Below, piece by piece: positions 3,252 through 17,063 of a DNA stretch of 64,000 nucleotides (position 1 is the stretch's first letter; each line of letters opens with the position of its first letter). The notes beneath the pieces were generated by a model. The model searched no databases. It was given only the letters and a program-made list of their open reading frames with translations, and had not been told where the DNA came from. The stretch comes from Baekduia alba (GTDB lineage: Bacteria; Actinomycetota; Thermoleophilia; Solirubrobacterales; Solirubrobacteraceae): contig NZ_CP114013.1 in assembly GCF_028416635.1 (NCBI RefSeq), positions 3,844,001-3,908,000 on the forward strand. The letters run 5' to 3'. The position numbers were made by a program, and so were the translations under genes.

Positions 3252-3514
3252 TCGATCACGCTGTGGCGGAGCTCCTCGAGCTCCAGCTCGTAGTCGGCGC
3301 CCATGCCCTCCAGGAGCGCGATGGTCGCGGCGGCCTCCTCCTCGTCGACGCGCGAGATCGCGAAACCGACGTGGATCAGGACCCAGTCGTCGATCCGGGC
3401 GTCGTCGAGCAGGCCGACGTTCACCGTCCGGCGCACGCCGGCGACATCCACGCGCGCTAACCGGTTTGCCTCGTCGACCATCTCGATGATCCGACCAGGG
3501 ATCGCCAAGCACAT
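3248..3514 (-). CDS. hypC: Hydrogenase assembly chaperone HypC
   Basis: 88 residues starting MCLAIPGRI, the exact HypC N-terminus; Cys2 binds the Fe(CN)2CO intermediate with HypD and hands it to the large subunit. The rest follows the HypC barrel (VDVAGVRRTVNVGLL, then DWVLIHVGFAISRVDEEEA). An AGGA ribosome-binding site lies 7 bases before the ATG. This is the first gene of the minus-strand hyp operon and is read divergently from a GntR-family regulator, with a 12-bp palindrome in the shared promoter region. Confidence 0.96.
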   Translation of the reverse strand: MCLAIPGRIIEMVDEANRLARVDVAGVRRTVNVGLLDDARIDDWVLIHVGFAISRVDEEEAAATIALLEGMGADYELELEELRHSVIE

Positions 3515-3541
3515 AGCTTTGTCCTACTCCGGCGAACGGTG

Positions 3542-3553
3542 CGCTTGCAAGCG
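3542..3553. promoter_or_regulatory. Perfect 12-bp palindrome between hypC and the GntR gene
   Basis: CGCTTGCAAGCG reads identically on both strands and sits in the 70-base divergent region between hypC (start 3514) and the GntR gene (start 3585). Its TTGCAA core coincides with a possible -35 box of the GntR gene, followed after 18 bases by TCTACT (3569-3574). GntR-family regulators of the FCD class bind short palindromes, so this is a candidate operator for autoregulation and hydrogenase control. That link is inferred from position and symmetry only. Confidence 0.5.
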
Positions 3554-3584
3554 AATGGGCCGCGGTGGTCTACTGGCGTCTGAC

Positions 3585-4250
3585 ATGCCAGTGCCTCAGC
3601 AGCGGGCCGCGGTGGACCGCCAGCTCTTGCGCGACAACGCCTACGCGATGTTGTGTGGCGCGATCGTCGACGGGACGTTGGCGCCCGGAGAGTCGCTGCG
3701 CGACGACGAGCTGTGCGCCTGGCTCGGCCTGAGCCGGACGCCGGTGCGCGACGCGCTCGGCCGCCTGGCCGACGACGGGCTGGTCGAGATCGCGCCGCAG
3801 CGCTACACGCGGGTGAGCCCCCTGACGACCCGCGAGGCGCACGACACGTTCCCGCTGGTGGCCGCCGTCCACGCGCTGGCCGCCGAGCTCGGGGTGCCGC
3901 GGCTGAGGCGCGCCGACCACGCGCGGCTGCGGGAGGCCAACGACGCGTTCATCGTCGCGCTCACCGCCCGCGAGGCGCCCGCCGCCTACGACGCCGACGA
4001 CGCGTTCCACCAGACGCTCGTCGACGCGTCGGGCAACGACGAGATCCGCCGGACCCTGCGCCACGTCGGCCCCCGGCTGCGGCGGCTGGAGCTCCTGCCC
4101 GACACGGCGCTGCCGGGCCGGCGGTCGGTCGCCCAGCACGAGGCGATCATCGCGCGCGCCTCGGCCGGCGACGTCCGCGGGACCGCGTCGGCGACGCGCG
4201 AGAACTGGCTGGAGCTGGGCGCGCTGGTGGAGCGCTCGCTCAAGGCATAG
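3585..4250 (+). CDS. GntR family (FCD-type) transcriptional regulator
   Basis: 221 residues. The N-terminal winged helix-turn-helix (about residues 10-75) shows the GntR pattern: LAPGESLRDDELCAWLGLSRTPVRDALGRLADDGLVE. The C-terminal all-helical effector domain (about 85-215) includes DADDAFHQTLVDASGN and HEAIIARASAGD, typical of FCD ligand domains with metal-binding His residues. The ATG at 3585 is chosen because homology begins soon after; an ATG at 3555 is also in frame. No Shine-Dalgarno is visible, and a -10-like TCTACT lies 10 bases before the ATG, so the mRNA may be nearly leaderless. It is divergent from the hyp operon and may regulate it; the ligand is unknown. Confidence 0.88.
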   Translation: MPVPQQRAAVDRQLLRDNAYAMLCGAIVDGTLAPGESLRDDELCAWLGLSRTPVRDALGRLADDGLVEIAPQRYTRVSPLTTREAHDTFPLVAAVHALAAELGVPRLRRADHARLREANDAFIVALTAREAPAAYDADDAFHQTLVDASGNDEIRRTLRHVGPRLRRLELLPDTALPGRRSVAQHEAIIARASAGDVRGTASATRENWLELGALVERSLKA

Positions 4251-4252
4251 GA

Positions 4253-6922
4253 CTAGCTTCCCGTGCGGACCGCCCAGTCCGTGGCGCGGCCCGCGCGGGT
4301 GCGCAGCGTGAACGTGACGACGTCGCCGGCGCGGCGGAACCGGGCGCGGCGGCCGCTGACGAAGACCGCCGGGTGGGCCGTCGGCGCCGGGAGCCGGACC
4401 TGCATCGCCAGCGTGCCGCCGCGGACCGGCCGCACGTAGCCGCGGGCCTGGCGGGCGCCGTAGGCGACGCCCGCGACCTTCGTGCGCACCGAGAAGCTCG
4501 ACGCCGGCAGGCGCGGCGACACGCGGTAGCCGGTGGGCGTCGCATCCAACCCGCCCAGCTTGAACAGGTCGAACAGCCCCCACGCGTGGGCGTGCGTGAT
4601 CTGCGTGTTGTAGGCGGTGGAGAAGCCGAGGCCGCAGCGGCCGGGCGACGGGCTCGACGGACCGGCGCACGTGTCGTCGGTCGTGATGATCCCCGACCAC
4701 TGGTCCGGGTAGGTCTCGGCGTGGTTGGCCAGCGTGATGCGCCGGAACACGTCCCAGGCGTAGGCGCCGGCGCCCGGGATCGCGTCGGCCTTCTGCGCCA
4801 GCCCCCAGACCAGCGGGCCGTTCATGAACCACCACGACTCCGAGCCCGGGAAGTTCGACGTCGACTCCGTGATGTCCGGGTCGCCCTTGGCCGGGACCGC
4901 GAGCGGCCCGACCGGCGACGGGCCGCGCAGCTGCGGCGGCGCGCCCTGGTCGTCGAGGTAGCGCCGGACGTTGCCGACGATCGCCGCCGACTGCGCGGCG
5001 CTCGGCAGGCCGGCCATCAGCGGCCAGTACTGGGCGTCGGCGTAGATCGCCCCGGTGCCGAACACGCGATCGCCGATGTAGCCGCGGGCGTACCAGCCCC
5101 GGGCCTGCCACTGCGCCTGCACCGCACGCGCCAGCCGGGCGCCGTCGGCGCGCAGCGTCGCGGCGAAGGCACGGTCGCCGTGCGCGGTCGCCAGCGCGGC
5201 GAGCTGCGGGTACATGTAGGCGAAGTTGCCGGTGGTCGAGGTCGACTCGGTCAGGTGCAGCGCCGGGGTCGTGAGGTCGAAGGTGTCGCCCTCGGTACCG
5301 GGGCGGTACAGGCCGTGGGGCCCGTAGCCGATGCGCTTCTCCTGGTTGGCGTACGCCAGGCGCAGGTGCTGCCAGACCGTGCCCGCGCCGCCGCCGGCGT
5401 AGCGGACGCGCTCGTCGAGGAACGCGAAGTCGCGCGTCTGCTGCACGTACTGGATGACGCTGAGCTCCAGCCAGAAGCTCAGCTCGTCGGCGGTGCCGAA
5501 CTTCTCCACGCGGCCGCACAGCGGGCCGGTCCCGTAGGGCAGGTCCCCGGTGTGGGCGCGCTGGTACTGCAGCGCCCAGACGATCGTCTCCTTGGCGAGC
5601 TTGGGGTCGAGCAGCGTCATCGGCAGCATGTGCTCCAGCGGGTCGCGCAGGGCCTCGTCGAACCCGATCGCGTACTGGTAGTAGCCGCCCTGCGTGATCG
5701 TGTGCACGCCGCAGATCGCGTCGTAGACCGACGCCGCCTTGACCATGTAGGCGTCCCACTGCATCTCGCGCCCCACCCAGGCGTCGCGGCCGCCGAGCGA
5801 CACCTGCGGCACGAAGCGCCGCCACGCGTCCATGCTCTTGCGCAGCGGCTCGCGCACGCGGCCCAGCCGCCGGACCAGCCCGGTGACCTGCCGCGGCTGC
5901 GCCATGCCGTAGGCGTAGCGCAGCGTGACTGAGCGGTGCGGCGCCAGCCGCACGGCGGACTGCAGGACGAACGCGGTGTCGCCCACCTTGCCGTTGGCGA
6001 CGGGTCGCGCCCCGGCCGCGCCCCGCAGGCGCGTCGCGGCGCCCGTCGGCTGGGCGCGCGTCCCGGCGCCGAAGAACCGCGCGGCGCTCGTGCCGTGGCC
6101 GTCGACCGGGGCGCCGAGCGCGGCGGCGAAGATCGACAGCGGATGCTCGTCGCCGGCGAAGGGCCGCTGGGCGACCGACAGCGTGCGGGTCGCCGCGGCG
6201 TAGCGCGGCGCGCCCATGCCGCGGTGCACGAGCTGCGGCTGCACCTCCTCCTTGGGGTTGTGCAGCACGACCGGGTTGACGTCCCAGTACTCCGACCACA
6301 CCGCGTTGATCGGCTTGGTGGTGGTGTTGGTGATCCGGACGTCGTGGCGGACGGCGGGGTCGTCGCCGAACGGCGCGTAGACGGTCTCGTCGATCGCGAC
6401 CGGCGCGCTGACCGTGCGCCGCGCGAAGGAGCCGACGCCGTAGCGGCGCAGCGTCCGGGCGCCGGCCGGGCGGTCGTCGTAGGCCGTGCTGATCGTCCGG
6501 CCGCCGACGCGCAGGAAGCCGTAGCCGCCGCCGTAGTGGCGCCGGTCCGGCTCGTAGCGGTTGCCCCACTGCGCGAGCCGGTCCTGATCCCAGAACTGGA
6601 TCCAGCCGCCGGTGTGCGCGTCGACCTTGACGCGGCCGTTGCCGACCTGGTTCCACGCGTCGGTGCCGCCGGCGAGCGCCTGCTGGGCGGCGATGGGGTT
6701 CGTGTGCTGGTCGATGGTGTAGTCGTAGGCGGGCAGGCCGAAGCGGTCGGTCACCCAGCGGCCGAAGTCGCCGTTGCCGAAGGGCGAGGAGATGGCGGCC
6801 CGCCCGGCGTCGCCGCTGAGCGGCGGCGGGCCGGCCGCGAGCGCCGGGCTTCCGGCGGCGGCCGCCGCCGGCAGGAGGCCGAGCGCCGCGGCGAGCAGCA
6901 GGGGCAGGCGTCGTCTGGTCAT
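4253..6922 (-). CDS. Exported GH94-like (glycosyltransferase family 36 fold) carbohydrate-active protein
   Basis: 889 residues with a signal peptide (MTRRRLPLLLAAALGLL, cleavage near residue 30). After it come a beta-sandwich region with GNGDFGRWV, YDYTIDQ and GGYGFLRV, a long (alpha/alpha)6 barrel with WDAYMVKAASVYD, GGYYQYAIGFDEALRDPLEHM and DLPYGTGPLCG, and a C-terminal beta domain. This resembles cellobiose phosphorylase and cyclic-glucan-processing GH94/GT36 proteins, which are usually cytoplasmic; export here makes a phosphorylase reaction less likely and a hydrolytic or binding role more likely (inference). It is the last gene of a four-gene operon, its ATG overlapping the upstream esterase stop by 4 bases. 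The exact substrate cannot be read from the sequence. Confidence 0.72.
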   Translation of the reverse strand: MTRRRLPLLLAAALGLLPAAAAAGSPALAAGPPPLSGDAGRAAISSPFGNGDFGRWVTDRFGLPAYDYTIDQHTNPIAAQQALAGGTDAWNQVGNGRVKVDAHTGGWIQFWDQDRLAQWGNRYEPDRRHYGGGYGFLRVGGRTISTAYDDRPAGARTLRRYGVGSFARRTVSAPVAIDETVYAPFGDDPAVRHDVRITNTTTKPINAVWSEYWDVNPVVLHNPKEEVQPQLVHRGMGAPRYAAATRTLSVAQRPFAGDEHPLSIFAAALGAPVDGHGTSAARFFGAGTRAQPTGAATRLRGAAGARPVANGKVGDTAFVLQSAVRLAPHRSVTLRYAYGMAQPRQVTGLVRRLGRVREPLRKSMDAWRRFVPQVSLGGRDAWVGREMQWDAYMVKAASVYDAICGVHTITQGGYYQYAIGFDEALRDPLEHMLPMTLLDPKLAKETIVWALQYQRAHTGDLPYGTGPLCGRVEKFGTADELSFWLELSVIQYVQQTRDFAFLDERVRYAGGGAGTVWQHLRLAYANQEKRIGYGPHGLYRPGTEGDTFDLTTPALHLTESTSTTGNFAYMYPQLAALATAHGDRAFAATLRADGARLARAVQAQWQARGWYARGYIGDRVFGTGAIYADAQYWPLMAGLPSAAQSAAIVGNVRRYLDDQGAPPQLRGPSPVGPLAVPAKGDPDITESTSNFPGSESWWFMNGPLVWGLAQKADAIPGAGAYAWDVFRRITLANHAETYPDQWSGIITTDDTCAGPSSPSPGRCGLGFSTAYNTQITHAHAWGLFDLFKLGGLDATPTGYRVSPRLPASSFSVRTKVAGVAYGARQARGYVRPVRGGTLAMQVRLPAPTAHPAVFVSGRRARFRRAGDVVTFTLRTRAGRATDWAVRTGS

Positions 6923-12792: not shown

Positions 12793-13356
12793 ATGAGCCC
12801 CAGCCCTTCGACCGACGCCGAGGCGATCGAGCGCTCGCTGCGCGAGCCCGGCGCGTTCGTGACCGTCTTCGAGCGCCACTACGCGGCGGTGCACGGCTAC
12901 GCCAGCCGCCGCGTCGGCGGCGACCTCGCCGACGAGATCGCGGCCGAGGCGTTCCTGCTGGCCTTCGACCGGCGGTCGACCTACGACCGGGCCTACGCCG
13001 ACGCGCGGGGGTGGCTGCTGGCGATCGCGTCCAACCAGCTGCGCCATCACTGGCGCGCGGAGCGCCGGCGCTGGGACGCCTGGGTGCGGGCGCAGGCCGG
13101 CCGTCCGGCGGCCGACGCGCTCCCCGAGGCGCTCGCCCAGAGCACCGTCGACGCGCTGGCCGCGCTCGCGTCCGACGACCGCGAGGCGCTCCTGCTGTTC
13201 GTCTGGGGCGAGCTCACCTACGACGAGGTCGCACGCGCCGTCGGCTGCCCGGTCGGGACGGTCCGCTCGCGGATCGCCCGCGCGCGCCGGCGCCTGCAGG
13301 CCGAGCTTCCGAGAACCGAACCCGTCCGCACCCGAGAGGAGATCTGCGATGTCTGA
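12793..13356 (+). CDS. ECF-family RNA polymerase sigma factor
   Basis: 187 residues. Region 2 (about 25-95) includes FVTVFERHYAAVHGYASRRVGG, DEIAAEAFLLAF and ARGWLLAIASNQLRHHWR; region 4 (about 125-180) includes ASDDREALLLFVWGELTYDEVA and CPVGTVRSRIARARRRLQ. The next gene overlaps its end by 8 bases and encodes a CU044_5270-family membrane protein; this pairing is common in actinobacteria, and the partner probably restrains the sigma factor. No clear autoregulated promoter could be assigned; a short GGGAT/ATCCC hairpin lies just before the ATG. Confidence 0.9.
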   Translation: MSPSPSTDAEAIERSLREPGAFVTVFERHYAAVHGYASRRVGGDLADEIAAEAFLLAFDRRSTYDRAYADARGWLLAIASNQLRHHWRAERRRWDAWVRAQAGRPAADALPEALAQSTVDALAALASDDREALLLFVWGELTYDEVARAVGCPVGTVRSRIARARRRLQAELPRTEPVRTREEICDV

Positions 13357-14377
13357 CCTGGACCTGCTGCGGCAGTTGGCCGCGCCCGCACCCGCGCCGA
13401 CCCCCGAGGCGCAGCGCACCGCGCTGCAGGCCCTCGAACGCCACATCGCGCTCGCGCGCGCCGCGGCGGCCCCGGCGCCGGCCGCCGCGCCCCCGCGCCG
13501 CCGCGCGCCGCGGCGCCGGCGCTTCGCGCTGCCGGCCATGGCCGCGGCCGCGGTGGCCGCCGCCGTCCTCGTGCTCGTGGGCACCGACGACGGCGCGGCT
13601 CCCGCGCCGGCCTCGGCCGCGACGGTCCTGCACCACGCCGCCGCCGCGGCGCGCGAGCAGGCGCCGGCCCAGGCCCTCGGGCCGGGCCAGTACCTCTACA
13701 CCGAGTCGGTCGGCGCCGTCCTCTACGTGACCCAGGGCGCCCAGGCCATCCGTCGGCTCGTCCCGCTGCGCCGCGAGGCGTGGCGCGACGGCGACGGCGA
13801 CGGCTGGCTGACGTCGCGCCCCGGCACGCCCACGTGGTTGACGCCGGGCGACCACGACGCCTGGGTCGCCGCCGGCCGGCCGCACCTGGGCACCGGCGCG
13901 AGCGACGTGGCGCTGAGCGGCGCCGACCGCGCCGACGTCCCGCCCGGGACCAAGACGGCGCCGCTGCCGTCGACGCCGGCCGCGCTGGCCCAGCGCCTGC
14001 GCGCCGACGCGGCCGACGCCAAGGGCGCGCCCGTCGACCAGCAGGTGTTCCTCGAGGTCGGCGACGCCCTGCGCCAGGTCAGCACGACGCCGGCCCAGCG
14101 GGCCGCGCTCTACGAGGTCGCGGCGCAGCTCCCCGGCGTCGGTCTCAGCGACGACGCGCGCGACGGGACCGGGCGCGCGGGCGTCGCGGTGGCGATGGAC
14201 GTGCCCGGCAAGGCCATGCGGTTGGAGCTCGTCTTCGACCGCGACACCTACACCCTGCTCGGCGAGACGACGACCACGCTGGCCGACAACCCCTACAACC
14301 TGCCCGAGGGCACACGCATCGGGTGGACCGCCCACGTGCGGACGGCCGTCGTCGACGGCATCCGGCAGCGCCCGTAG
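13349..14377 (+). CDS. CU044_5270 family membrane protein, likely sigma-factor partner
   Basis: 342 residues. The N-terminus MSDLDLLRQLAAPAP and a Pro/Ala/Arg linker (RRRAPRRRRF) precede one membrane segment (about residues 62-80, MAAAAVAAAVLVLVG); the remaining 250 residues are extracytoplasmic and contain the family's GQYLYTES motif. The gene begins inside the 3' end of the ECF sigma gene, showing coupled expression. Proteins of this family sit next to ECF sigma factors and are thought to act like anti-sigma factors, though no zinc-binding anti-sigma motif is present in the short cytoplasmic part. Confidence 0.8.
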   Translation: MSDLDLLRQLAAPAPAPTPEAQRTALQALERHIALARAAAAPAPAAAPPRRRAPRRRRFALPAMAAAAVAAAVLVLVGTDDGAAPAPASAATVLHHAAAAAREQAPAQALGPGQYLYTESVGAVLYVTQGAQAIRRLVPLRREAWRDGDGDGWLTSRPGTPTWLTPGDHDAWVAAGRPHLGTGASDVALSGADRADVPPGTKTAPLPSTPAALAQRLRADAADAKGAPVDQQVFLEVGDALRQVSTTPAQRAALYEVAAQLPGVGLSDDARDGTGRAGVAVAMDVPGKAMRLELVFDRDTYTLLGETTTTLADNPYNLPEGTRIGWTAHVRTAVVDGIRQRP

Positions 14378-14385
14378 CGCGTCGC

Positions 14386-15861
14386 TCAGCAGGCGACGCG
14401 CGCCGGCAGCCAGCCGCGGGTGCCGCCGTCGGTCCGCACCCGCAGCCACTGGCGGCGGGCCGCCAGGACGGCCAGCGGCTGGCCGCTGGTGACGGTGCCC
14501 GCGGCGCTGGCGCCGGGAACGGCGCGGAGCGTCGCCCGGCGGCGGCAGGCGTGGACGACCGGCAGCGGGCCGGCGCCGCGCGGCGCGGCGCGCACCGACC
14601 CGCCGCGGTCGGGCACGCGGCACAGCACCGCGACGGTGAGCCGGCGCTCGCCGGTCGCCATCCGCGCGGTGTCGAGCAGGACGCTGGCCCGGCGGCTGAC
14701 GCCGACGACGGTCGCCGGGTCCATGCCGTGGGAGATGTCGTCGCCGGGGAACGGGACGAGCCCCGCGACGCGCATCGTCGCCGGGCAGGTCAGGCTCACG
14801 GCCAGCGGCCGGGCCGTGCGCCGGGCGACGGCCTCGCGGGTGACGACGGCCATGTGCGCCGGCACCGTCGCGCCCTTGGCCAGCCGCCCGCCCGGCACGC
14901 CGACGCCCTGCAGCGCCACCGGCGTCCGGCTGCCGGGGCCGAAGACGTGCGTGTGCAGCGCGTAGGCACCGCCCGCGGCGAGCGCGCCCGCCGCGACGAC
15001 CGCCGTCGCCTTGGCCGCCAGCGGCTGGCCCGCGCCGCCGACCAGGCCGCCGAGCTTGCCGGTCGCGCCGAGGCCGCCGCCGAGCAGCAGCAGCGCCGCG
15101 GGCGCGGGGACCAGGACGCGCAGCTGGCGGCGGCGCTGCTTGAGCGCGACGCGGAAACGCCGGCAGTCGCGGCACGACGCCACGTGGCGCAGCGCGGTCA
15201 TCGGCGGGCGCCGGCGCCGGTCGTGGGCGACGAGCAGGTCGTGGCGGATGTCCTCGCAACGCGTCTCGCGCGCCTCGGCGGCGCGCGTCAGGTTCTCCCG
15301 GGCGCGATGGACGAGGTTCTTGCTCGCGGCGGCGGAGATCCCGAGCTCGCGCGCGACCTCGTCGTGGGTGAGGCCGTCGAGCTCGCGGCGCACCAGCGCG
15401 TGGCGCTGGCTGGCGGGCAGCGCCGAGATCGCGGCGAGCGTGCTCAGCGTGGTCTCGCGCTCGATCGTCAGGTCGTGCGGCGAGGCGCTCGGCGCCGCCG
15501 GCTCGTCGCCGGTGGCCTGCAGCAGCTCGAGCGGGACCGCGTCGGTGTGGGCGCGCGCCAGCTCGTCCAGGCAGCAGTTGCGAACCAACCGGAACATGTA
15601 GGGCTTGACCTGGATGTGCCGGTCGTCGCGGCGCAGCGCGAGGTGCGAGCGCAGCAGCGCCTCCTGGACGACGTCCTCCACGACGGCGGGCCGCGCGCGG
15701 AGGATCCGGCCGGCGTAGCGGGTCAGCGCGGGCGCGTGCCGGCGCGCGAGCGCGTCGAAGGCGGCGCCGTCGCCGGCCCGGAGCATCTCGACGAGCTCGG
15801 AGTCGGCGGCGCGGTCGTAGGGACGGGACACGACGGCCGGACGGACGGGCTGGGCGCTCAC
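14386..15861 (-). CDS. Membrane-anchored sigma/anti-sigma fusion: ECF sigma + zinc anti-sigma domain + TM + SH3-like tail
   Basis: 491 residues from GTG 15861 (GGAGGATCG before it). Residues about 20-105 are sigma region 2 (AFDALARRHAPALTRYAGRIL, VVEDVVQEALLRSHLAL, YMFRLVRNCCLDEL) and 140-195 region 4 (LPASQRHALVRRELDGLTHDEVA, GISAAASKNLVHRARENL). Then comes a complete ZAS zinc motif C202-x23-H226-x3-C230-x2-C233, the fold of redox- or signal-sensitive anti-sigma factors, two hydrophobic segments (about 248-266 and 283-303), and an exported part that ends in an SH3-like repeat (WLRVRTDGGTRGWLPARVAC). The sigma factor and its restraint are thus one chain fixed in the membrane. Release would need proteolysis or a conformational change (inference). 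Confidence 0.85.
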   Translation of the reverse strand: MSAQPVRPAVVSRPYDRAADSELVEMLRAGDGAAFDALARRHAPALTRYAGRILRARPAVVEDVVQEALLRSHLALRRDDRHIQVKPYMFRLVRNCCLDELARAHTDAVPLELLQATGDEPAAPSASPHDLTIERETTLSTLAAISALPASQRHALVRRELDGLTHDEVARELGISAAASKNLVHRARENLTRAAEARETRCEDIRHDLLVAHDRRRRPPMTALRHVASCRDCRRFRVALKQRRRQLRVLVPAPAALLLLGGGLGATGKLGGLVGGAGQPLAAKATAVVAAGALAAGGAYALHTHVFGPGSRTPVALQGVGVPGGRLAKGATVPAHMAVVTREAVARRTARPLAVSLTCPATMRVAGLVPFPGDDISHGMDPATVVGVSRRASVLLDTARMATGERRLTVAVLCRVPDRGGSVRAAPRGAGPLPVVHACRRRATLRAVPGASAAGTVTSGQPLAVLAARRQWLRVRTDGGTRGWLPARVAC

Positions 15862-16175
15862 CGATCCTCCGGGCAGATCGTGGACGTCCGCAGCCAGCCG
15901 CGGGTGCGGAAGCGCGTCAGCACGCGCCGCCAGCGGTCGCCGCGGTCGCGCAGCAGCACGCGGACGACGTCGCCGTCGTGGACGACGCCGACGACCGCGC
16001 CGCCGGGCGACTCCACCAACTTGACCTCGGCGGCGCAGACTCGGACGCCGTGGGGCGACGTGGCGGCGTGGGCGTCGGTGGCGGCCGCGCCGACGCCGGC
16101 GGCGAAGGAGCAGGTCGCGAGCAGCGCGACCGCGCGGCGGGGCAGTGGGGAGCGGGGAGAGCGGGGCACGTGCAC
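15858..16175 (-). CDS. Small exported SH3-like protein, partner of the sigma fusion
   Basis: About 105 residues (103 if GTG 16169 is used instead of GTG 16175; neither has a clear ribosome-binding site). A signal peptide (LPRRAVALLATCSFAAGVGA, cleaved near DAHA) is followed by a single SH3-like domain with GGAVVGVVHDGDVVRVL and TRGWLRTSTIC, bounded by one Cys at each end (CAAEV and STIC) that may form a disulfide. The stop overlaps the GTG of the sigma fusion, which carries a similar SH3-like tail, so the pair probably acts in one extracytoplasmic sensing event, for example binding a cell-wall ligand. Function is inferred from context. Confidence 0.68.
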   Translation of the reverse strand: MHVPRSPRSPLPRRAVALLATCSFAAGVGAAATDAHAATSPHGVRVCAAEVKLVESPGGAVVGVVHDGDVVRVLLRDRGDRWRRVLTRFRTRGWLRTSTICPEDR

Positions 16176-16277
16176 GTAAGACCGGGTCCGCGCCCGAAGG
16201 TCTCGGACCTTGTGCGGGGCCAGTCTGACACGATGCAAACTCCGGTACCGATCGCGGTCCACGCCGTCATAGAGGGC

Positions 16278-17063
16278 ATGACCATCACCTCCCCGTCCCT
16301 CCGCCGCCGCGGCCTCGCGCTGCTCGGCGCCTCGGGCGCCGTCGCCGCGCTCGCCCTCCCCGCCCTCGCCGGCGCCGCGCCGGCCGCGCTCGACCCCGCG
16401 CTCACCGACACCGGCATCCCGGCCGGCGTCCTCGAGCACGGCGTCGTCGCGTTCGACCTCACCGGCGTGCCGAAGCCCAGCCACGGCACCACCGAGTACT
16501 GGGCGACCTCCAGCAGCTGGCGCTCCGTCTCGCGCGACGCGTCCGGCGCGCTGTCCGCGCAGGGCGTCTCGTCGCCGTCGGGCAGCGTCGTGTTCAACGC
16601 CAAGGAGCGGATCTCGTTCCGCAGCGACGGGCCGAGCACCCCGCCGTTCGCCGGCTGGAGCCCGGCCTACAACAAGAAGCTCGTCGCCGGCGGGCTCCTG
16701 CAGCCGATCGGACCGCAGACCGTCGCCGGCATCGCGGGCACGAAGTACACGGTGCCCGACGGCAAGAAGTCGAACGACCCGAGCACCGGCGCCGACCACT
16801 GGGTGACCGACAACACCGCGGCGCAGACGACGATCGTCCTGGAGGACGGGACCTACGCCCCGCTCGTGCGCGAGTCGACCAGCGACAACGGCTCCTACGG
16901 CACGTTCGACCAGCGCGAGACCCTGCAGTCGCGCGAGCACACGCCGCTGACGTCGGCCACGGCGACCGCGGCGCGCGTCAGCAAGCCGGCGCTCGCCAAG
17001 CTGCTGACCCGGTGGGAGCGCCAGTCCAAGGCGTCGGCCAAGCGCCAGGCCGCGCACCGCTAG
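16278..17063 (+). CDS. Exported protein of unknown function
   Basis: 261 residues from ATG 16278. A signal peptide with three Arg (LRRRGLALLG) and a hydrophobic stretch ending in ALAGAAPA suggests export, possibly by Tat. The mature part has no motif I recognise; it contains GTTEYWATSSSWRSVSRD, a FRSDG segment and TVAGIAGTKYTVPDGKKS, which looks like a beta-rich domain seen in actinobacterial secreted proteins, and ends in a basic tail (SKASAKRQAAHR). An upstream in-frame ATG at 16233 would add 15 residues ahead of the signal peptide and is less likely. It is divergent from the SH3/sigma operon. Confidence 0.7.
   Translation: MTITSPSLRRRGLALLGASGAVAALALPALAGAAPAALDPALTDTGIPAGVLEHGVVAFDLTGVPKPSHGTTEYWATSSSWRSVSRDASGALSAQGVSSPSGSVVFNAKERISFRSDGPSTPPFAGWSPAYNKKLVAGGLLQPIGPQTVAGIAGTKYTVPDGKKSNDPSTGADHWVTDNTAAQTTIVLEDGTYAPLVRESTSDNGSYGTFDQRETLQSREHTPLTSATATAARVSKPALAKLLTRWERQSKASAKRQAAHR

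What the first reader, a model, noticed from the sequence alone, without database searches (positions are those of the whole stretch)
14386..16175. Membrane-anchored sigma factor fused to its own zinc anti-sigma domain, with a secreted SH3-like partner
One chain contains sigma regions 2 and 4, a complete C-x23-H-x3-C-x2-C zinc motif, two hydrophobic segments and an exported SH3-like tail; the overlapping upstream gene encodes a small exported SH3-like protein. This is a one-protein signal transducer from envelope to promoter. Release must involve proteolysis or refolding, and the SH3 domains suggest a cell-wall or peptide ligand.
Basis: partly seen in the sequence, partly recalled or inferred. 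Interest (0 to 1): 0.62.

Follow-up and report, generated by a model that had tools for sequence, protein, structure and literature searches.

The report
Sigma factor wired through cell membrane
A soil-type bacterium carries a gene switch that is glued to its own off-button and anchored in the cell membrane, and its relatives keep small exported helper proteins next to it, one of which looks like the envelope-stress sensor RseB of E. coli.

Summary
Window 14386-15861(-) is one 491-aa chain: ECF sigma regions 2 and 4, a zinc anti-sigma (ZAS) domain, two weak hydrophobic segments and an exported tail. A secreted SH3 gene overlaps it by 4 nt. The fusion itself is a published kind (ECF48/52/53 'one-component' sigma factors).
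(1) The tail has a second, conserved two-cysteine domain (D1) before the SH3. (2) In relatives, 24 of 28 D1-type fused sigmas have a stand-alone exported SH3 or D1 gene directly upstream; 0 of 27 fused sigmas without D1 do. (3) The divergent neighbour (16278-17063 +) is an exported protein whose model matches RseB best (Z 12.4). This genome has exactly three such genes and three D1-type sigmas, paired one to one. (4) The 102-bp gap between the two units holds back-to-back copies of an ECF-like promoter motif, the only two in 64 kb.
Best reading: a sigmaE-RseA-RseB-like envelope switch with sigma and anti-sigma on one chain, probably released by proteolysis and probably self-activating. Partner function, proteolysis, ligand and topology are inferred. 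New variant of a known kind.

The parts
14386..15861 (-). Fused ECF sigma / zinc anti-sigma / membrane segment / D1 / SH3 protein, 491 aa (P0001)
   Evidence: AlphaFold2 model pLDDT 86.2
15544..15804 (-). Sigma region 2 (residues 20-106)
   Evidence: Pfam Sigma70_r2; model matches E. coli sigmaE region 2 bound to its -10 element, 4lup, Z 15.1, 94 aligned, 2.6 A
15265..15480 (-). Sigma region 4 (residues 128-199)
   Evidence: Pfam Sigma70_r4_2; matches sigmaE region 4 on -35 DNA, 2h27, Z 11.4, 69 aligned, 1.7 A
15112..15258 (-). Zinc anti-sigma (ZAS) domain, residues 202-250; zinc site C202, H226, C230, C233
   Evidence: Invariant in 42 of 42; zf-HC2 found in 12 of 42 members, best 2.9e-4, but not in this member itself; profile finds stand-alone anti-sigmas
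15061..15117 (-). Hydrophobic segment 1 (residues 249-267), Pro-containing; could be the fourth ASD helix or membrane
   Evidence: model helix 254-265 at low confidence
14953..15009 (-). Hydrophobic segment 2 (residues 285-303), Ala/Gly-rich, the likelier membrane span
   Evidence: hydrophobicity scale recalled from memory; low-confidence part of model 269-297
14578..14940 (-). D1: extracytoplasmic beta domain with two invariant cysteines
   Evidence: Own HMM 5.5e-34 (trained on it); cysteines invariant in 16 of 16; residues 301-415 beta in model
14389..14574 (-). C-terminal (cis) SH3-like domain
   Evidence: Pfam SH3_3 9.4e-8; model residues 432-491 match a stretch of NlpC2 6biq, Z 10.5, 58 aligned, 1.2 A
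15858..16175 (-). Exported stand-alone (trans) SH3-like protein, 105 aa (P0002); stop overlaps the sigma start (GTGA). An in-frame GTG at 16169 is an alternative start
   Evidence: both cysteines kept in all 15 trans SH3 rows (read by eye)
16180..16212 (-). ECF-type promoter-like site toward the SH3-sigma unit (CAAGGTCCGAGAC-N17-GTC, 2 mismatches to consensus)
16236..16268 (+). ECF-type promoter-like site toward the RseB-fold gene (CAAACTCCGGTAC-N17-GTC)
   Evidence: same motif upstream of the homologous gene in L043, L050, L094, L097, L112
16278..17063 (+). Exported RseB/LolA-fold protein X (261 aa), divergent neighbour
   Evidence: AlphaFold2 pLDDT 71; VIA-align top rows are four RseB entries, Z 12.2-12.4, 158-165 aligned, 3.5-4.0 A, 6-8% identity; family alignment

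Best explanation
This is a membrane-tethered one-component envelope-stress sigma factor with dedicated exported partners. SHOWN: sigma, zinc anti-sigma domain and ectodomain (D1 + SH3) are one chain; a secreted SH3 (or D1) gene and an exported RseB-fold gene are conserved next to it; both transcription units in the window carry the same promoter-like motif. INFERRED: the ZAS domain clamps sigma regions 2 and 4 in cis; one hydrophobic segment crosses the membrane, so D1-SH3 lies outside; the RseB-fold protein and the soluble SH3 bind the ectodomain and shield it from a site-1 protease until an envelope signal (perhaps a lipid-like molecule for the RseB fold and a wall or peptide ligand for SH3) removes them; site-1 then site-2 cleavage frees a sigma-ZAS fragment; the ZAS part is then trimmed or loses its hold, and sigma transcribes its own operon and the RseB-fold gene, which resets the switch (positive autoregulation plus negative feedback).
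For: Domain architecture and confident model. ZAS homology to stand-alone anti-sigmas beside ECF sigmas. Partner conservation, 24 of 28 against 0 of 27 controls. Cis and trans SH3 are two old, separately inherited lineages: 3 label changes against a shuffled mean of 12.5. RseB is the best structural match of X, and X genes pair one to one with D1-type sigmas in this genome, 3 and 3. Back-to-back promoter motif, the only 2 sites in 64 kb and 2 of 6 in the genome. M50 site-2-type proteases are present at three places in the genome. Published expectation of proteolysis for ECF48/52/53, and the SCO4117 truncation data (PMC8999054, PMC5826349, passages).
Against: No binding, cleavage or expression data. 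X shares only the LolA/RseB fold (6-8% identity to RseB, pLDDT 71) and lacks the second domain of RseB; LolA, LprG and VioE share that fold. X was found in 11 of 28 loci within 3.5 kb, and the motif in a minority. The motif was defined on these loci: genome-wide it is no commoner than its reversed control (6 against 5). Both hydrophobic segments are weak, and two spans would put the tail inside. 4 of 28 have no SH3/D1 partner. In a fused chain, cleavage at the membrane leaves ZAS attached to sigma, so a further step is needed.
Confidence: 0.5

Rival explanations
1. Exported SH3 and the RseB-fold protein are outputs, not regulators: ordinary wall- or lipid-binding proteins that the sigma switches on, while the sigma senses directly through D1-SH3.
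For: Both units carry the same promoter-like motif, as target genes would. LolA-fold proteins are often lipid or lipoprotein carriers (rows).
Against: The partner is almost always 5' of sigma in the same operon (24 of 28), and is a second copy of one of the sigma protein's own ectodomains, which fits a binding partner better than a random target. X occurs only beside these sigmas in this genome.
Confidence: 0.3
2. Thiol/zinc switch: oxidation of the ZAS zinc site frees sigma within the chain (RsrA-like); the membrane part is only an anchor or tuner.
For: Zinc site invariant in 42 of 42. RsrA-type ZAS domains are redox switches (PMC3961337, abstract start in search listing).
Against: Does not explain the conserved ectodomain, its partners or their co-inheritance. 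Many ZAS anti-sigmas are not redox sensors (recalled).
Confidence: 0.15
3. Both hydrophobic segments span the membrane, so D1-SH3 lies in the cytoplasm and the secreted SH3 is unrelated to it.
For: Two segments of similar weak hydrophobicity in several relatives.
Against: Stand-alone copies of D1 and SH3 carry signal peptides (read by eye), and the paired cysteines of D1 are invariant in 16 of 16, typical of oxidised, exported domains.
Confidence: 0.06

Closest known systems
ECF52 sigma factors (SCO4117, Streptomyces coelicolor), and ECF48/ECF53
   Same: ECF sigma fused to zinc finger/ZAS and one or two membrane helices with an outside tail; Actinobacteria; proteolytic release proposed (PMC8999054, PMC5826349, passages)
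   Different: ECF52 tail is proline-rich with a carbohydrate-binding module; here it is D1 + SH3 with conserved exported SH3/D1 and RseB-fold partners, which the passages read do not mention
sigmaE-RseA-RseB / AlgU-MucA-MucB
   Same: ECF sigma, membrane anti-sigma, exported protein of the same fold (Z 12.4 RseB, 10.4-10.6 MucB); role of RseB from PMC8103513 (passages)
   Different: Sigma and anti-sigma are one chain; anti-sigma is zinc type; X has no second RseB domain; an added SH3/D1 partner; Actinomycetota
IutY (ECF243, Pseudomonas putida)
   Same: Sigma and anti-sigma in one polypeptide, released by Prc and RseP (PMC8999054, passages)
   Different: FecR-type cell-surface signalling with an outer-membrane receptor (recalled); no ZAS and no SH3 (recalled)
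Two-gene ECF-ZAS pairs (RsiW/SigW, ChrR/SigE type)
   Same: ZAS domain of the same family; 9 of 10 fetched homologues sit directly 3' of an ECF sigma gene
   Different: Here the genes are fused and the ectodomain is new

Membership tests
ECF sigma factor | Regions 2 and 4 only, no region 3 | tested here: met
   Pfam and TIGR02937 sigma70-ECF 66.7 bits over cut-off 42.9; fold
Zinc anti-sigma (ZAS / class I ASD) | Conserved C/H-x22-25-H-x3-C-x2-C and homology to stand-alone ZAS proteins | tested here: met
   (zf-HC2 in 12 of 42 members, not this one). The PDB sequence search found no ZAS
One-component ECF (sigma fused to its anti-sigma) | Sigma, ZAS and membrane segment in one reading frame, conserved in relatives | tested here: met
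   33 of 33 loci L001-L033 carry the zinc motif in the sigma frame; 26 of 28 D1-type frames uninterrupted
ECF52 | Proline-rich linker and carbohydrate-binding module | tested here: not met
   Tail is D1 + SH3; no carbohydrate-binding Pfam match in P0001 at E up to 1
ECF48 / ECF53 | Group HMM of the ECF classification | not testable with these tools
   Group models and the 2021 classification paper are not held
Bacterial SH3 (SH3b) | SH3_3 profile and fold | tested here: met
   Cis copy 32.6 bits over cut-off 27. Trans copy 19.8 bits, below cut-off in Pfam but found by the family profile
RseB/MucB | LolA-like N-terminal fold | tested here: met
   RseB rows rank 1-4 (Z 12.2-12.4), about 2 Z units above the best LolA (10.0)
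RseB/MucB | Second, C-terminal domain that contacts the anti-sigma (recalled) | tested here: not met
   X is 261 aa; its alignments to RseB and MucB end at model residue 234-243 and chain residue 193-208
RseB/MucB | Binds the anti-sigma ectodomain and blocks site-1 cleavage | not testable with these tools
   Needs binding and cleavage assays
Regulated intramembrane proteolysis substrate | Cleaved by site-1 and M50 site-2 proteases | not testable with these tools
   M50 genes exist at three places, which shows only that the machine is there

The most novel reading that the evidence does not exclude
A three-part actinobacterial envelope-stress switch in which sigma and anti-sigma are one chain and two exported brakes, an RseB-fold protein and a soluble copy of the sensor's own SH3 (or D1) domain, gate its cleavage. 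The protease must then destroy or detach the inhibitor and stop before it eats the sigma on the same chain.
Probability: 0.3. Interest if true: 0.75.

Novelty: new variant of a known kind. Interest (0 to 1): 0.52.

Why it matters
If right, the RseB principle (an exported lipid-type sensor guarding a sigma factor) exists in a phylum far from E. coli and is combined with a sigma fused to its inhibitor. It turns an open question, what regulates one-component ECF sigmas from outside, into direct tests with named partners and promoters. The cis/trans sharing of one sensor domain is also a clean case of a receptor with a soluble copy of itself.

Tried and rejected
Pfam zf-HC2 on P0001 alone gave no match; only the family gave it. 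PDB sequence search with the ZAS, D1-SH3 and X profiles found nothing convincing. A generic AAC/GTC promoter scan found nothing consistent; the motif was seen by eye in those outputs and then tested. The loose form TCCGGKAC-N14-18-GTC is at background genome-wide (75 matches against 86 for the reversed control), and the full form is 6 against 5. The claim therefore rests on position and on recurrence in relatives, not on genome-wide enrichment. Hydrophobicity could not settle whether one or two segments span (scale from memory). The first tally of 29 D1-type fused sigmas included L095, which on checking has no sigma part in frame, the tail following a methyltransferase-like ORF; it was dropped, giving 28. 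L096_trans in the SH3 tree is really its cis SH3 after the in-frame TAG, and L095_cis is also in that tree. Near-duplicates left out of the count: L093 (same contig as L033) and L112 (near-copy of L098); further copies in G160 were not fetched. L107-L111 (solitary SH3 or D1 matches without a fused sigma) were not counted. For 21 of the 27 control loci (L012-L032) at most about 1.5 kb upstream was available. A per-group ECF assignment was not possible. D1's own fold was not searched alone (prediction cap).

Full report
WHAT IS THERE. The window lies in a 5.86-Mb, GC-rich genome (G000:C1:3844001-3908000). Relatives place it near Solirubrobacteraceae: L033 is a Solirubrobacteraceae MAG, 44% identical over residues 20-488. 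One ORF, 14386-15861 on the minus strand, reads as 491 aa. Pfam finds Sigma70_r2, Sigma70_r4_2 and SH3_3. The motif C-x23-H-x3-C-x2-C sits at 202-233; its four ligands are invariant in all 42 rows of the relatives' alignment. The upstream gene (stop 15858, GTG 16175) overlaps by 4 nt and encodes an exported SH3-like protein.

MODEL. AlphaFold2 on the 42-row alignment gives mean pLDDT 86.2. Sigma helices run 20-106 and 128-199, ZAS helices 202-250 (ten-residue blocks mostly 96-98, 88 at the end). A weak stretch covers 269-297, and the tail from 301 to 491 is mostly beta. VIA-align matches region 2 to DNA-bound sigmaE region 2 (4lup, Z 15.1, 94 aligned, 2.6 A) and region 4 to sigmaE region 4 on -35 DNA (2h27, Z 11.4, 69 aligned, 1.7 A). 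The relative placement of regions 2 and 4 and ZAS was not tested (pTM 0.43).

THE ZINC DOMAIN IS A REAL ANTI-SIGMA. Pfam zf-HC2 is found in 12 of 42 members, not in this one. A profile of the fused zinc domain alone matched 69 of 296 Actinomycetota genomes. I fetched ten of those matches, chosen for short open frames. All ten stretches hold a match in a short frame, and in nine an ECF sigma gene lies directly 5' on the same strand (L145 is arranged differently). The fused protein thus corresponds to an ordinary sigma/anti-sigma gene pair joined into one.

THE FUSION IS COMMON HERE AND PUBLISHED ELSEWHERE. All 33 loci L001-L033 carry the zinc motif in the sigma frame. The review PMC8999054 (passages) describes ECF48, ECF52 and ECF53 as Actinobacterial sigma factors with a ZAS-like zinc finger, one or two membrane helices and outside extensions, expected to be activated by proteolysis. 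PMC5826349 (passages) describes SCO4117 (ECF52), with a proline-rich region and a carbohydrate-binding module. The present tail lacks that module.

THE TAIL AND ITS SOLUBLE COPIES. The tail holds D1 (about 308-428, two cysteines invariant in 16 of 16) and then SH3. A tail profile matched 24 of 146 genomes of the family. In an even sample of the class it matched 34 of 399, with only one strong match outside the family (G411); in a sample of the phylum 5 of 396, three of them in the family. It is a lineage-specific device. Of 28 distinct fused sigmas with D1 (29 less L095), 24 have directly upstream, on the same strand, an ORF with a stand-alone SH3 (15) or D1 only (9); L033 and L048 have both close by. 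The four without are L051, L056, L104 and L106. Among 27 fused sigmas without D1, none has such a neighbour (up to about 1.5 kb upstream for 21 of them). Six of the 28 lack the cis SH3 (L044, L047, L051, L100, L105, L106); four of these six have a trans SH3. In a tree of 38 SH3 rows, cis and trans copies need 3 label changes against a shuffled mean of 12.5 (75 columns, so many forks are open): the two copies are old partners, not recent duplicates. All 15 trans SH3 rows keep two cysteines (read by eye).

AN RseB-FOLD NEIGHBOUR. The divergent gene 16278-17063(+), called X, is exported (signal peptide read by eye). No Pfam family matched it. Its homologues lie beside D1-type sigmas in 11 of 28 loci within 3.5 kb, and next to L112. 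In the whole genome an X profile finds exactly three genes, and each lies beside one of the three D1-type sigmas (window, 1.55 Mb, 4.19 Mb). I had noted an RseB/LolA/LppX fold as a guess before modelling (note). The model (pLDDT 71) then gave Foldseek matches to VioE, MucB, LprG, LolB and RseB; in VIA-align four RseB entries rank first (Z 12.2-12.4, 158-165 aligned, 3.5-4.0 A), MucB at 10.4-10.6 and LolA at 10.0 or below. Identity is 6-8% for RseB, and the second RseB domain is absent, so this is a shared fold, not proven function.

PROMOTERS. Upstream of X in several relatives the string AGTCCGGGAC-N15-GAGTC recurs with different spacers (L050, L094, L097, L112; seen, scanned; these four are of one genus); L043 has the same -35-like part with a shifted GTC/GTT. 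Generalised to CAAASTCCGGKAC-N17-GTC, it has two sites with up to 2 mismatches in the 64-kb window on both strands. Both lie in the gap between P0002 and X, back to back, one facing each unit (16236 + and 16212 -). In the whole genome there are six such sites against five for the reversed control, so two of six fall in one 102-bp gap. The perfect 13-mer occurs twice in the genome, both upstream of X genes, though it was defined on these sites. The third cassette (L044) lacks it. L058, a D1-less fused sigma, has a similar site 5' of it. The shape (GGGAC ... GTC) is like known ECF promoters (recalled). In L045, the closest relative, X, SH3 and sigma run in one direction; in the window X is divergent but both units carry the motif.

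HOW IT PROBABLY WORKS. Shown: the chain, the partners, the pairing and the motif. Inferred: cis inhibition by ZAS, an outside tail, shielding by X and SH3, two-step cleavage, autoregulation. Three M50 protease loci exist. A feature of any fused design is that after membrane cleavage the ZAS is still attached; the trimming protease must stop before sigma, or the ZAS must let go. RseB's role (binds RseA, blocks the first cut, proposed to be removed by LPS) is taken from PMC8103513 (passages).

IN PRINT? Searches of the held open-access library listed no paper whose title or abstract start joins a fused ECF sigma with SH3 tails or an RseB-fold partner; I read passages of only four papers. Most subscription papers and the 2021 ECF classification are not held, so this is weak evidence of novelty.

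VERDICT. The new part is the partner set and the promoter pair. New variant of a known kind; interest 0.52.

Noticed in passing
window 12793-14377 (+): A second ECF sigma gene followed by a CU044_5270-family protein (NF038083, 1e-46) converges tail to tail on the fused sigma gene (8 bp between the stops); possibly another sigma/anti-sigma pair.
   Followed up: partly
L096 (G066:C51): The fused sigma of one MAG-like assembly has an in-frame TAG inside D1; single case, perhaps an assembly error or a dying gene.
   Followed up: partly
L095 (G067:C17) 3288-4901: A D1-SH3 tail follows a DNA-methyltransferase-like ORF with no sigma part in frame; rearrangement or misassembly.
   Followed up: partly
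L054 and L055 (G024): The stand-alone D1 proteins seem to have lost both conserved cysteines (read by eye), and the cis SH3 of the neighbouring sigmas lacks its cysteines too.
   Followed up: no
L108 (G000:C1:1343000-1352000) near 4385-4516 (-): A solitary SH3 match of the same type in the same genome, with no fused sigma in the 9 kb fetched.
   Followed up: no
L058 4465 (+): The promoter-like motif (2 mismatches, GTT) lies about 130 bp 5' of the sigma match of a fused sigma without D1; the motif may belong to the wider family.
   Followed up: no
L047 7469-8752 (-): A second sigma match upstream on the same strand in the same 11-kb stretch of G005.
   Followed up: no
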